Source of the DNA: Acidobacteriota bacterium
Lineage (GTDB): Bacteria > Acidobacteriota > Holophagae > Holophagales > Holophagaceae
Assembly (NCBI GenBank): GCA_021794095.1
Contig: JAJYRN010000009.1
Span: 1-64,000, forward strand
Length of the DNA: 64,000 bases
Reading direction: 5' to 3'
Part shown: positions 33,255 through 36,536 of the stretch, in pieces
How the letters are laid out: every line of letters starts with the position of its first letter
How positions within the stretch are numbered: position 1 is the stretch's first letter
Program-made: the position numbers and the translations under genes
The notes under the pieces: generated by a model
Told to the model about the DNA's origin: nothing
Database searches by the model: none
The model's input: only the letters and a program-made list of their open reading frames with translations

Positions 33255-33974
33255 ATGGACCTTTTCCCTCGTTCTGTCTGCCGAATCCTGGCCTGGGTTT
33301 TCCTTTCCGGAGGGATGGCTGCCGTCACGCTGCGGGCGGCGGGCCCTCCGCTTCGGCCGGCACCGCCCCTCGTGGCCCAGGATGAGGACGGGCGTCCCTT
33401 TTCCCTGGCCGCGCTGAAGGGCAAGGTGGTCCTGCTCGATTTCTGGGCCTCCTGGTGCGGCCCCTGCCGCCAGAGCCTGCCTTTCGCCGATCGGCTCCAG
33501 GCGCGGTACCGGGCCCAGGGGCTGCGGGTGGTGGGCGTGTCCCTTGATGAGGATCCGAGCGCCGTTCAGGATTTCCTCGACCGCGTCCCGCTCCAATTCA
33601 CCATCGTCCCCGACACGACCGGACACAGCGCCGAGGCCTTTGGCGTCGTGGCTATGCCGACGGCGTTCCTCATTGACCGGCAGGGACGCATCGTGGCGCG
33701 GTTCGAAGGCGGCGCGCACTTGAAGGAGGAGGCGGCGGCTGTGGCGGCGTTGCTGGATGGGGCCGGGGCACCCACCACCGAGGACGTCCGGGTGTCCTCC
33801 GGTCTCGAGGCCACGGATGGGCTCAAGGCCTGGCAACGGGGCCACCTGGCCGATCCCATCATGAACCTGGATGGCGATCCGCTCACGGCCGCCCTCCGGG
33901 AGCATATCCACGCGAGCAAGGAAGGCGCGGCCGGCAATGGCGGCGCGGCGGGAGGCGGCTGTGGCTGCAACTGA
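33255..33974 (+). CDS. Thioredoxin-like (TlpA/ResA) protein fused to a DUF4266-like tail
   Basis: The 239-residue exported protein has a signal-anchor (about residues 8-30) and a thioredoxin domain with redox pair Cys68/Cys71 in WASWCGPCRQSLP and the cis-Pro AMPTAFLID. After about residue 175 a second module starts: KAWQRGHLADPIMNLDGDPL and a tail ending AAGGGCGCN. This matches DUF4266 proteins, which are normally separate small lipoproteins. The neighbours are a DUF3570 barrel, ApbE and a DsbD-N-like protein, so the fusion joins the thiol-redox and DUF4266 functions of one extracytoplasmic cassette. Confidence 0.85.
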   Translation: MDLFPRSVCRILAWVFLSGGMAAVTLRAAGPPLRPAPPLVAQDEDGRPFSLAALKGKVVLLDFWASWCGPCRQSLPFADRLQARYRAQGLRVVGVSLDEDPSAVQDFLDRVPLQFTIVPDTTGHSAEAFGVVAMPTAFLIDRQGRIVARFEGGAHLKEEAAAVAALLDGAGAPTTEDVRVSSGLEATDGLKAWQRGHLADPIMNLDGDPLTAALREHIHASKEGAAGNGGAAGGGCGCN

Positions 33975-35184
33975 GCATGCACGCCTCCTGGTGCGGCGGC
34001 GCAGGGTGCGAACCTCCTCCTGGATCATGGCCGGTGCGGGACTGCTTAGCGGCCGGATGCTCCAGGCCCAATCCTCGGTGGAACTCCGCTACCTCTTCTA
34101 CGGCGAATCCGACGGCCGCACCCAGGTGCAGAACCCCAACCTCCTGCTGCACCAGGATCTCGGGGCGGCCCTGGGGCAGTTCGACCTGATGCTCTCCCAC
34201 GACACGGTCTCCGGCGCCTCGCCCACGGGAGGCTATCCCACGCTGGCGGTCACCACGACGACCTCGGCCTCGGGCAATCGCTCCACCAGTGCCAGCGGCC
34301 AGATCCCCATGGTGCTCTATTCGGATCAGCGGAACGGCCAGAGCCTCGGCTACAGCCGGCGCATCGGGGCGCACCTGCCGCGGATTGATCTCTCTCATTC
34401 GGTGGAGAAGGACTACATCGCCCGCGGCTTCGGCCTCTCCGATGCCTGGACCATGGCCGGCGGGCGGGGCACGCTGCACTACGGCCTCTCCTGGGACAAC
34501 GACACGGTGGCGCCGGTGACCAGCCTCCTCCGGTTCCCCAAGCGGAGTCGCGGCTTCGCCCTGGGCTGGACCTGGATCCTCGGCGAGGACGATCTGGTGG
34601 ATGTCTCCCTCAGCCGCACGAAGCTGGAGGGCGACCTGAACGAACCCTACCTCATCGTGCCGGTGGGGACCGGCACGGTGCCCGAACGCCGTCCGGGCAC
34701 GCGGACCCGGGATGCGCTCCTCGTGAAGCAGGGGCACTACTTCGACGACTGGGACGGCGCCCTGAAGACCACGTACCGCTTCTACACTGACGACTGGGGC
34801 CTGCGGGCCCACACGCTGGAATTCGACTACGACCAGCACCTGGATGATGGCTGGATCCTTTCGCCCGAGCTGCGGTTCTACACCCAGAACGCCGCGTCGT
34901 TCTACGGGGCCTACTTCACCACGCCCCAGAAGTTCCTCTCCGCGGACTACCGCCTGTCGGCCTTCCACAGCATCCAGGTCGGCTGCGCCCTCTCCACCGA
35001 GCTGATGGAGGGCCTGACCCTCCGCCTGGGCGGCACCTACCAGATCCAGCAGGGCAGCCATCCCCTCACGCCCATGGCCGTTGCGCCCACCGCTGGCTCG
35101 CTCCCTGTCTTCTCAGGGCCAGGCACCTCGGCTGCGGATGTCAATGCCACCACGTTCTCGGTGGGGTTGAAATGGCAGTACTGA
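33961..35184 (+). CDS. DUF3570 outer-membrane barrel protein
   Basis: The 407-residue protein begins MAATEHARLL with an arginine-rich n-region and a short hydrophobic segment ending LQAQ, as DUF3570 proteins do. It continues with many amphipathic strands (ELRYLFYGESDG, GRGTLHYGLSWDNDT, HTLEFDYDQHLDDGW) and ends in VGLKWQY, an outer-membrane insertion signal. GTG 33961 is chosen because GGGAGG precedes it and the N-terminus fits the family; it overlaps the preceding gene by 14 bases. DUF3570 is usually found with DUF4266 and ApbE, as here. Confidence 0.82.
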   Translation: MAATEHARLLVRRRRVRTSSWIMAGAGLLSGRMLQAQSSVELRYLFYGESDGRTQVQNPNLLLHQDLGAALGQFDLMLSHDTVSGASPTGGYPTLAVTTTTSASGNRSTSASGQIPMVLYSDQRNGQSLGYSRRIGAHLPRIDLSHSVEKDYIARGFGLSDAWTMAGGRGTLHYGLSWDNDTVAPVTSLLRFPKRSRGFALGWTWILGEDDLVDVSLSRTKLEGDLNEPYLIVPVGTGTVPERRPGTRTRDALLVKQGHYFDDWDGALKTTYRFYTDDWGLRAHTLEFDYDQHLDDGWILSPELRFYTQNAASFYGAYFTTPQKFLSADYRLSAFHSIQVGCALSTELMEGLTLRLGGTYQIQQGSHPLTPMAVAPTAGSLPVFSGPGTSAADVNATTFSVGLKWQY

Positions 35185-36128
35185 CCGGGGCGGGAAGCCG
35201 CGCCCTCTACACGATGACGTTCCCCCTCATGGGAGGCGAAGCGGTGATCCGCTTCGTGGAGGGTCGCGGGCAGGCGCGGGCGGAACAGGCGGGCCGCGCG
35301 GCCGTACGGGAGGCCCGCCGCATCGAGGCCAAGTACTCCCGCTATGCGGCCCAGAGTGTCGTCTCCGAGATCAATGCCAGGGCCGGGCGGGGCCCGGTGC
35401 CGGTGGATGACGAGACGGCGTTCCTGATCCAGTCCGCCCTGGATCTGGGCACCTGGACCGGGGGCCGCTTCGATCCCACCGTGGGCGTCCTGCGGAAGGC
35501 CTGGGATTTCCGGAAGGCCCGGGTGCCTTCGCGTGGGGAACTGGACGCCCTGCTTCCGCTCGTGGATGCCCGGTCGGTGGTGCTCTGCCACGGCGCGGTC
35601 GAACTCCTGCGCGAGGGCATGGAACTGGACCTGGGGGGCGTGGGGAAGGAATACGCGGTGGATCGCGCCACGGAGCGGCTGCGGGAGGCGGGCGTCGAGT
35701 CGGCGGTGGTCAACTTCCTCGGCGATGTGCGGACCCTGGGATGCCGCGGCGATGGCCAACCCTGGGTGGTCGGTGTGCAGGATCCCCGGGACCGCGCCCG
35801 CTGCCGCTTCTCCATCCGGGTGGGCACTGGCGCCGGCGTGGCCACGTCCGGCGACTACGAACGCGGGTTCGAGCTGGCGGGCGTGCGCTACCACCACCTG
35901 TTGGATGCCACCACGGGGTACCCGGCCCGGGGTCTGGCTTCGGTCACGGTCGTCGCGCCCACGGCCTTCGCCGCGGGCCAGTTATCCACAGCGGCCTTCC
36001 TGCTCGGCCCCGAGGAGGGGCTCCGCCTCCTGGCGGAGCGGTCCGGAGTGGAAGGGGCTCTGGTCACTGAATCCGGCGCGGTGCTTGCCACACCGGGGAT
36101 GGCCCGCATCTCCAGCCTTGCCTGCTGA
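35172..36128 (+). CDS. apbE: ApbE-family FAD:protein FMN transferase
   Basis: ApbE attaches FMN to threonine residues of exported proteins. The 318-residue enzyme has DLGGVGKEYAVDRA, then GVATSGDYERGFE and YHHLLDATTGYPARG near the C-terminus, the usual FAD/Mg-binding and active-site motifs. No clear signal peptide is visible, so it may act in the cytoplasm or use a cryptic export signal. It overlaps the DUF3570 stop by 13 bases. No obvious flavinylation target motif (D-x-x-S/T-G-A-T) was seen in the neighbours. Confidence 0.9.
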   Translation: MAVLTGAGSRALYTMTFPLMGGEAVIRFVEGRGQARAEQAGRAAVREARRIEAKYSRYAAQSVVSEINARAGRGPVPVDDETAFLIQSALDLGTWTGGRFDPTVGVLRKAWDFRKARVPSRGELDALLPLVDARSVVLCHGAVELLREGMELDLGGVGKEYAVDRATERLREAGVESAVVNFLGDVRTLGCRGDGQPWVVGVQDPRDRARCRFSIRVGTGAGVATSGDYERGFELAGVRYHHLLDATTGYPARGLASVTVVAPTAFAAGQLSTAAFLLGPEEGLRLLAERSGVEGALVTESGAVLATPGMARISSLAC

Positions 36129-36140
36129 AAGGGGTTCTCC

Positions 36141-36536
36141 GTGAGCCGCCGATTCCTCCCCCTGCTGTTCGCCGTGGCGCTCCAGGCGCACGCCTTCGAT
36201 CCCGCCAAGGATGTGGCCATGACCGTGGCCCAGGGCCGACTCACCGTGGCCATTCCGCCGGGCGCTCACCTCACATGCCGGTCGTTCAAGGTGGCCCTCG
36301 CATCGGGTGCTGGGCACCTGGAGGTGGGTCCGATGCCCGCGGCCCAGGGCCGCGACGCTGTAGGCGATCCGATCTGGCGAGGCACGGTGCAGGTGCCGCT
36401 GCGGGGTGAGGGGCTGGGGGAACGGGTGGTCCTCCGCATCACCTTCCAGCCCTGCACGGAGGGCCCGGATGCAGTGTGTTTCCTGCCTCAGCAGCGGATC
36501 CTTATCCTGGACGCGGCGGCTTCAGGCCTCCGCTGA
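36141..36536 (+). CDS. Secreted DsbD N-terminal-domain-like protein
   Basis: The 131-residue protein has a signal peptide (RFLPLLFAVALQAHA) and a beta-rich domain ending in FQPCTEGPDAVCFLPQQRILIL. The two cysteines and their context match the DsbD alpha domain, which passes reducing equivalents to periplasmic thiol proteins. It starts at a GTG 12 bases after apbE, with AAAGGGG upstream. With the thioredoxin fusion at the start of the operon it suggests a periplasmic thiol relay. Its end overlaps the convergent methyltransferase gene by 15 bases. Confidence 0.75.
   Translation: MSRRFLPLLFAVALQAHAFDPAKDVAMTVAQGRLTVAIPPGAHLTCRSFKVALASGAGHLEVGPMPAAQGRDAVGDPIWRGTVQVPLRGEGLGERVVLRITFQPCTEGPDAVCFLPQQRILILDAAASGLR

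What the first reader, a model, noticed from the sequence alone, without database searches (positions are those of the whole stretch)
33255..36536. Extracytoplasmic redox cassette with a thioredoxin-DUF4266 fusion
Four genes overlap or nearly touch: thioredoxin fused to DUF4266, DUF3570 barrel, ApbE, DsbD-N-like. DUF4266 is normally a separate lipoprotein, so the fusion links thiol chemistry to the DUF4266/DUF3570/ApbE module, whose function is not established. ApbE in the cassette suggests a flavinylated target, but none is evident.
Basis: partly seen in the sequence, partly recalled or inferred. Interest (0 to 1): 0.6.

Follow-up and report, generated by a model that had tools for sequence, protein, structure and literature searches.

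The report
Flavin-barrel cassette with thioredoxin tail fusion
This is an acidobacterial version of a recently described but little-understood electron-transfer gene set, in which a thioredoxin is joined to the flexible two-cysteine tail that probably passes electrons to a flavin fixed on an outer-membrane barrel; it suggests how the parts connect.

Summary
Window 33255-36536 carries a TlpA-type thioredoxin fused to DUF4266, a DUF3570 protein, ApbE, and a free-standing DsbD N-terminal domain.

The reading changes in one main point: a flavinylated target is evident. It is DUF3570, already shown to be flavinylated by its ApbE (Meheust et al. 2021, PMC8238504), and the window copy keeps the site (DTVSGAS). 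The DUF4266/DUF3570/ApbE/thioredoxin set is therefore a described cluster type.

What appears new:
(1) The fusion: in 15 of 32 DUF4266-bearing genomes of the phylum; a tree needs two changes of that label; all 17 distinct fusions seen lack the lipid anchor of separate DUF4266.
(2) Gene 4 is a dedicated copy of the DsbD N-terminal domain, found only beside this cassette.
(3) The cassette ApbE has no signal peptide and has Gly at the catalytic/metal Asp, as do 68 of 68 readable leaderless cassette ApbEs; 13 of 13 other ApbEs keep Asp.
(4) DUF3570 models as a 16-strand outer-membrane barrel (pLDDT 93), flavin site at the rim on the long-loop side.

Proposed path: DsbD -> (nDsbD) -> TlpA CxxC -> C-terminal CGC tail -> FMN in the barrel -> outer acceptor. 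Composition and target are well supported; direction and acceptor are inference.

The parts
33255..33974 (+). TlpA/ResA-type thioredoxin fused to DUF4266 (239 aa); signal peptide without lipobox
33456..33467 (+). codons of the redox CxxC (Cys-Gly-Pro-Cys) of the thioredoxin domain
   Evidence: read; both Cys invariant in 17 of 17 fused proteins
33825..33971 (+). DUF4266 domain, predicted flexible, replacing the usual separate lipoprotein
   Evidence: pLDDT under 50 over residues 169-211 of the mature model
33960..33971 (+). extreme C-terminal Cys-Gly-Cys-Asn, proposed thiol shuttle
   Evidence: CGC followed by exactly one residue in 110 of 112 DUF4266 members
33937..35184 (+). DUF3570 outer-membrane barrel, ApbE substrate (start 33937 or 33991)
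   Evidence: barrel model pLDDT 93.3, 16 long strands; best structural matches are outer-membrane barrels
34201..34221 (+). flavinylation motif D-T-V-S-G-A-S; acceptor Ser codon 34219-34221
   Evidence: motif D-x-x-[S/T]-G-A-[S/T] from PMC12052999; conservation
34261..34275 (+). second, relaxed motif T-S-A-S-G in the first long loop
   Evidence: Ser in 35 of 47, gap in 11, Ala in 1
35172..36128 (+). ApbE, FAD:protein FMN transferase without signal peptide
   Evidence: first possible ATG/GTG/TTG of the frame is 35172
35976..35978 (+). codon of Gly269, in place of the catalytic/metal Asp of characterised ApbEs
   Evidence: Asp role from PMC12052999 section 7
36141..36536 (+). free-standing DsbD N-terminal (alpha) domain with Cys105/Cys113 pair

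Best explanation
The cassette is a DUF3570-type extracytoplasmic flavin electron-transfer module. SHOWN elsewhere: ApbE attaches FMN to DUF3570 (C. luteolum). SHOWN here by sequence: the window DUF3570 keeps the acceptor motif; the thioredoxin and the CGC-tailed DUF4266 are one polypeptide; gene 4 is a copy of the DsbD N-terminal domain; the cassette ApbE lacks a signal peptide. INFERRED: (1) ApbE flavinylates DUF3570 in the cytoplasm, before export and before the barrel closes round the site. (2) Electrons come from the genome's single DsbD, through the soluble nDsbD (gene 4) or directly, to the thioredoxin CxxC. (3) The flexible C-terminal CGC(N) tail works as a swinging thiol shuttle that carries the electron pair from the CxxC to the FMN on the barrel. 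(4) The barrel FMN hands electrons to an acceptor at the cell surface, perhaps Fe(III). Fusing thioredoxin and tail fixes donor and shuttle in a 1:1 unit and makes the lipid anchor unnecessary.
For: The known cluster type and the flavinylation of DUF3570: PMC8238504 passages. Acceptor Ser/Thr 47 of 47, Asp 45 of 47. The second ApbE of the genome sits beside its own FMN_bind protein with SGATLT, which leaves the cassette ApbE free for DUF3570. All 17 genomes examined whose cassette locus shows no ApbE have one elsewhere. Fusion in 15 of 32 cassette genomes of the phylum; on a DUF3570 tree the label needs 2 changes, 2 forced by well-supported branches. C-terminal CGC plus one residue in 110 of 112; the tail is predicted disordered beside a well-ordered thioredoxin fold. 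Free-standing nDsbD: 6 of 7 cassette genomes of the family, 0 of 20 same-genus genomes without a cassette; one clade apart from the DsbD N-domains, support 100/99. DUF3570 model: 16 long strands, pLDDT 93.3; acceptor Ser52 lies at the end of strand 38-53, on the side of the long loops. Last residue F, Y or W in 88 of 106. Cassette genes overlap or abut.
Against: No experiment here; direction and acceptor are not shown. The cassette ApbE lacks the catalytic/metal Asp (Gly269). Metal-ligand residues were the only ones found critical for transferase activity in Ftp_Tp (statement in PMC4767422), so activity needs testing. No full dsbD is in the cassette, and DsbD_TM is in 52 of 52 genomes searched, with or without cassette, so it does not discriminate. 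Gene 4 is absent from G198, which has a fused cassette, and from the 25 cassette genomes outside the family. The AF2 model shows no ordered tail and so no evidence of contact between the tail and the CxxC, and no complex with the barrel was modelled. FMN at the outer rim would lie far from the periplasm, and whether the tail can reach it is untested. No conserved neighbour outside the genus names a function.
Confidence: 0.62

Rival explanations
1. Reverse flow: the module takes electrons from periplasmic thiols. The CGC tail is oxidised by barrel FMN and re-oxidises the thioredoxin, which then acts as a disulfide-forming oxidase, with the flavin handing electrons outward to oxygen or another acceptor.
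For: A CxC tail working next to a flavin is the arrangement of sulfhydryl oxidases (Erv2-type, recalled; one search gave no usable text). FMN to oxygen is chemically easy (recalled).
Against: The thioredoxin is of the TlpA/ResA/CcmG reductase type, gene 4 is a DsbD reductive-pathway domain, and Meheust et al. find full DsbD in 285 clusters.
Confidence: 0.15
2. Metal handling: the C-terminal CGC binds iron or copper and delivers it to or through the barrel; thioredoxin and nDsbD only keep the CGC reduced, and the flavin reduces the metal.
For: [quoted passage not shown] Cupredoxin-domain neighbours in four Glaciecola-type loci. An invariant free C-terminal CGCN could be a metal site.
Against: No recurrent neighbour family was found beside the fused cassettes beyond the genus (those neighbours were not scanned for metal transporters). 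CXC was read as possibly redox-active by Meheust et al.; no metal test exists.
Confidence: 0.14
3. The fusion is a neutral loss of one stop codon between two overlapping genes and says nothing about direct thiol exchange.
For: In the unfused relative L048 the thioredoxin and DUF4266 genes already overlap by 4 bp, and its DUF4266 has no lipobox.
Against: Two changes of the fused label on the tree, both forced by supported branches; kept in seven family codes; loss of the lipobox in 17 of 17 needs more than one lost stop codon.
Confidence: 0.1
4. The cassette ApbE is not an FMN transferase any more (Asp to Gly) and does something else, for instance FAD hydrolysis or removal of FMN, while another ApbE flavinylates DUF3570.
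For: Gly269 in the window and in 68 of 68 readable leaderless cassette ApbEs; no signal peptide; a second, secreted ApbE exists in the genome.
Against: Ser and His of the triad are kept (69 of 71 rows each; the rest are gaps and one Thr). A metal-site Asp side chain (D283) leaves metal site 1 in one E. coli Ftp structure (PMC4767422; that D283 is this same column was not checked). The acceptor motif in DUF3570 is conserved.
Confidence: 0.1

Closest known systems
DUF3570/DUF4266/ApbE/thioredoxin clusters without dsbD, 316 clusters, under 'DsbD systems' of Meheust et al. 2021 (PMC8238504)
   Same: Same four domains; DUF3570 with the flavinylation motif; DUF4266 with C-terminal CxC
   Different: Thioredoxin is TlpA/Redoxin type (paper: PF13899 in 183 of the DsbD clusters) and fused to DUF4266; DsbD N-domain as a separate gene; ApbE leaderless with Asp to Gly (not mentioned in the passages read)
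DsbD alpha domain (nDsbD, PF11412)
   Same: Gene 4 is homologous: 44% identity over 108 aa to the genome's own DsbD, Cys pair kept
   Different: Free-standing, in the operon, a clade of its own
Cytoplasmic ApbE of Klebsiella pneumoniae (described in the review PMC12052999, passage)
   Same: ApbE without signal peptide
   Different: There the target is a soluble fumarate reductase; here the inferred target is an exported outer-membrane barrel
CxC or selenol tails of sulfhydryl oxidases and thioredoxin reductase (recalled, not tested)
   Same: Flexible C-terminal two-thiol tail between a thioredoxin fold and a flavin
   Different: No homology claimed; the flavin here is on another protein and covalently bound
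Porin-cytochrome conduits such as MtrCAB (search listing, one abstract)
   Same: Redox centre placed in an outer-membrane barrel, as proposed here
   Different: Covalent FMN instead of haem; no cytochrome in the cassette

Membership tests
DUF3570-type flavinylation cluster (Meheust et al. [quoted passage not shown]
DUF3570-type flavinylation cluster (Meheust et al. 2021) | two conserved [S/T]GA[S/T] motifs in DUF3570 | tested here: inconclusive
   first motif SGAS met; second site is TSAS, one position off the motif
DUF3570-type flavinylation cluster (Meheust et al. 2021) | covalent FMN on DUF3570 | not testable with these tools
   needs expression; shown for C. luteolum in PMC8238504
DsbD system in the strict sense of Meheust et al. 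2021 | PF02683 DsbD transmembrane protein in the gene cluster | tested here: not met
   the only DsbD_TM of the genome is on another contig; only its N-domain has a copy in the cassette
ApbE, FAD:protein FMN transferase | PF02424 over its curated cut-off | tested here: met
   259 bits; solved ApbE structures at E down to 2.6e-47
ApbE, FAD:protein FMN transferase | catalytic Ser and His | tested here: met
   Ser226 and His242 by alignment to chain 7esa (that this is FmnB is recalled, the spacing fits its residues); residue roles
ApbE, FAD:protein FMN transferase | catalytic/metal Asp (Asp301 of FmnB, Asp285 of V. cholerae ApbE) | tested here: not met
   Gly269
ApbE, FAD:protein FMN transferase | signal peptide of the usual periplasmic ApbE | tested here: not met
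   no hydrophobic stretch before the domain, no upstream start; hydropathy rule, not SignalP
DsbD N-terminal domain | sequence homology to nDsbD with its Cys pair | tested here: met
outer-membrane beta-barrel | barrel fold with aromatic C-terminal residue | tested here: met
   predicted model; the window protein ends in Tyr, F/Y/W in 88 of 106 relatives
flexible CxC shuttle (works-like only) | tail exchanging disulfide with the thioredoxin CxxC | not testable with these tools
   model shows a disordered tail

The most novel reading that the evidence does not exclude
DUF3570 is an outer-membrane flavin conduit: a 16-strand barrel loaded in the cytoplasm with FMN by a leaderless, Asp-less ApbE subtype, exported unfolded with the flavin attached, and fed from the periplasm by a thioredoxin whose own C-terminal CGC tail reaches into the barrel. 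This would be a haem-free, thiol-driven counterpart of porin-cytochrome conduits.
Probability: 0.25. Interest if true: 0.85.

Novelty: new variant of a known kind. Interest (0 to 1): 0.52.

Why it matters
Which protein passes electrons to flavinylated DUF3570, and where it sits, was left open when the system was named. A fusion that needs two changes on the tree ties the thioredoxin directly to the CGC tail and turns that question into a test with one purified protein. The barrel model with the flavin site at the rim, and a leaderless ApbE subtype with an altered active site shared by cassettes of Acidobacteriota, Proteobacteria, Verrucomicrobiota and Latescibacterota, predict cytoplasmic flavinylation of an outer-membrane protein. 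The passages read of the system paper and of the ApbE review do not discuss that.

Tried and rejected
No separate FMN_bind target was found for the cassette ApbE: the only FMN_bind protein of the genome lies beside the other ApbE.

DsbD co-occurrence as support: rejected, DsbD_TM is in 52 of 52 genomes.

Conserved neighbours as a clue to function: outside the genus no non-core neighbour family was seen to recur across the fused cassettes. Many of the large families look like shadow frames of the core genes (my reading; not tested). In other phyla, two-component regulators, a cupredoxin, and in 13 loci a ~900 aa HZS_alpha/PD40 protein with two small barrel proteins recur (one representative of each scanned); no single function follows.

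Contact of the tail with the CxxC in the fusion model: no ordered tail was predicted.

Papers on a CxC shuttle to cite: nothing usable, so that comparison is recalled. The searches for DUF3570/DUF4266 found only PMC8238504; for flavinylated outer-membrane proteins and barrels that paper alone or none. The library lacks most subscription papers and preprints.

Whether the C. luteolum ApbE shown to work is of the Asp or the Gly type could not be checked: no Chlorobium locus was reached.

Hydropathy threshold: a 12-residue mean of 2.0 before the ApbE domain. L042 (1.85) and L137 (1.86) are just under it, L063 (2.0) is on it. L064 was mis-anchored and is not counted as leaderless. L045 (ApbE read in two frames), L100 and L151 were gaps at the Asp column.
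Full report
OBSERVATION. The four genes are real and at the stated places. Gene 1 (33255-33974) holds a Redoxin/TlpA-type domain (PF08534, E 1.9e-27) and DUF4266 (PF14086, 76 bits against a cut-off of 27) in one frame. Gene 2 is DUF3570 (191 bits), gene 3 ApbE (259 bits). Gene 4 has no direct family hit. Gene 3 overlaps gene 2 by 13 bp; gene 4 follows 12 bp after gene 3. Gene 2 starts at 33937, inside gene 1, or at GTG 33991.

SOURCE. The genome is 2.99 Mb in 28 contigs, 99% complete. The nearest named loci are Holophagaceae, Acidobacteriota (tree).

KNOWN SYSTEM. Meheust et al. 2021 (PMC8238504; passages, sections 6 and 23) describe clusters of ApbE, DUF3570, a thioredoxin-like protein and DUF4266: 285 clusters with DsbD, mostly of this make-up, and 316 such clusters without it. 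They show that C. luteolum DUF3570 is flavinylated by its ApbE at two [S/T]GA[S/T] sites, and that DUF4266 has a C-terminal CxC. The words fusion and fused do not occur in that paper's main text. DUF4266 and DUF3570 occur in no other paper of the library.

TARGET SITE. The minimal motif is D-x-x-[S/T]-G-A-[S/T], with FMN on the last residue (PMC12052999 section 8). The window has D-T-V-S-G-A-S at 34201-34221. Over 47 aligned DUF3570s from Acidobacteriota, Proteobacteria, Verrucomicrobiota and Latescibacterota the acceptor is Ser or Thr in 47 of 47, the Asp is kept in 45 of 47 (Glu in 2), and the Gly in 37 of 47. A second, looser site (TSASG, 34261-34275) lies in the following loop. The 47 are 29 of the 31 acidobacteriotal DUF3570s that I had plus 18 chosen from the named loci.

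FUSION. A search of 396 genomes drawn from the phylum found DUF4266 in 32. Reading the loci, the thioredoxin and DUF4266 are one protein in 15 of the 32, the window included, in seven family codes. In a scan of named genomes, 80 of 281 matching loci were kept; 3 of these 80 are fused, all Holophagaceae, and one of them (L080) is the same stretch as L053 (contig length and coordinates). Over both sets, without that duplicate, 17 DUF4266s are fused and 95 separate. A lipobox pattern precedes 81 of the 95 separate ones; 13 more have a GC lipobox variant by eye, and L048 has none. None of the 17 fused proteins has a lipobox. A DUF3570 tree of 70 rows (quick method; 40 of the named loci chosen by me) needs two changes of the fused label, and two are forced by well-supported branches; two separate fusions are the simplest reading, though the count does not separate gain from loss. 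The tail ends in CGC plus exactly one residue in 110 of 112. The AF2 model has an ordered thioredoxin fold and a disordered tail.

GENE 4. It aligns to residues 26-133 of the genome's only DsbD (44% identity, E 2e-31), which carries DsbD_N, DsbD_TM and Thioredoxin_7. The Cys pair is invariant in 6 of 6, and solved nDsbD is the best PDB match (E 7e-4). In 52 genomes searched, a free-standing copy occurs in 6 of the 7 cassette genomes of the family, in 0 of 20 same-genus genomes without a cassette, and in 0 of 25 cassette genomes outside the family. Eight gene-4 proteins form one clade apart from 15 DsbD N-domains, support 100/99. It is thus a dedicated electron carrier candidate, not a remnant.

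APBE. The window ApbE aligns to solved ApbEs. Ser226 and His242 match Ser257 and His273 of FmnB; Gly269 stands where FmnB has Asp301 (residue roles from PMC12052999 section 7; positions counted by me on the printed alignment, with chain 7esa taken as FmnB from recall because its spacing fits). It has no signal peptide, and no start codon lies upstream. By a hydropathy rule, 18 of 29 acidobacteriotal cassette ApbEs are leaderless, 10 look secreted and one (L064) is unclear. Of the 55 ApbEs listed from the named loci, 54 are leaderless, and the exception, L119, is on the opposite strand. At the Asp column, 68 of 71 leaderless rows have Gly and 3 are gaps; 13 of 13 other rows (11 acidobacteriotal cassettes, the genome's second ApbE, L119) have Asp. 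The 71 rows include one, L144, whose leader was not printed. These counts are of sequences, not events: the split may be one old change. The second ApbE of the genome has a signal peptide and lies beside an FMN_bind protein with SGATLT. A leaderless ApbE with a soluble target is known in Klebsiella (review passage); one for an outer-membrane target was not found in what I read.

BARREL. DUF3570 models at pLDDT 93.3 with 16 long strands; the best Foldseek and VIA matches are outer-membrane barrels such as BcsC, PelB, CymA and OmpG. Ser52 of the model, the acceptor, ends strand 38-53. The long loops (54-81, 190-211, 275-299, 331-358) lie on that side, which by the usual rule for such barrels (recalled) is the outside. 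Alternation of residue types along the strand suggests that Asp46 and Ser52 face the lumen; this is inference, as no coordinates were at hand.

MECHANISM. The best-supported account is DsbD -> nDsbD or directly -> TlpA CxxC -> CGC tail -> FMN on the barrel -> outer acceptor. Shown: composition, target motif, fusion, homology of gene 4. Inferred: order, direction, cytoplasmic flavinylation, acceptor. The Asp-to-Gly change is the strongest point against an active ApbE and is the first thing to test.

NOVELTY. A new variant of a described cluster: new fusion, new nDsbD partner, and a leaderless/Gly ApbE subtype that appears undescribed in the papers read (searches).

Noticed in passing
window 35172-36128; L041-L054, L056, L057, L062 and most of L079-L158: DUF3570-cassette ApbEs fall into a leaderless type with Gly at the catalytic Asp and a secreted type that keeps Asp.
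   Followed up: partly
L081, L082, L084, L085, L090, L091, L093, L104, L106, L120, L123, L127: Gammaproteobacterial cassettes without a detected ApbE in the locus, linked to a ~900 aa HZS_alpha/PD40 protein and two small outer-membrane barrel proteins; ApbE is elsewhere in each of these genomes.
   Followed up: partly
L148:3120-8439: A Verrucomicrobia record with two DUF3570-thioredoxin-DUF4266 sets in tandem.
   Followed up: no
L048:2187-3094: Unfused thioredoxin and DUF4266 genes overlapping by 4 bp, the DUF4266 without lipobox: looks like a step towards the fusion.
   Followed up: no
L045:4517-5800 and L064:5173-6114: ApbE read in two frames in L045 (frameshift or assembly error) and a degenerate ApbE in L064 lacking the usual TSG motif and His.
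   Followed up: no
L072:3743-7153: A second flavinylation cluster in the window's genome: secreted ApbE, porin-like protein, FMN_bind protein with SGATLT, and a weakly cytochrome b561-like protein (E 0.0092).
   Followed up: partly
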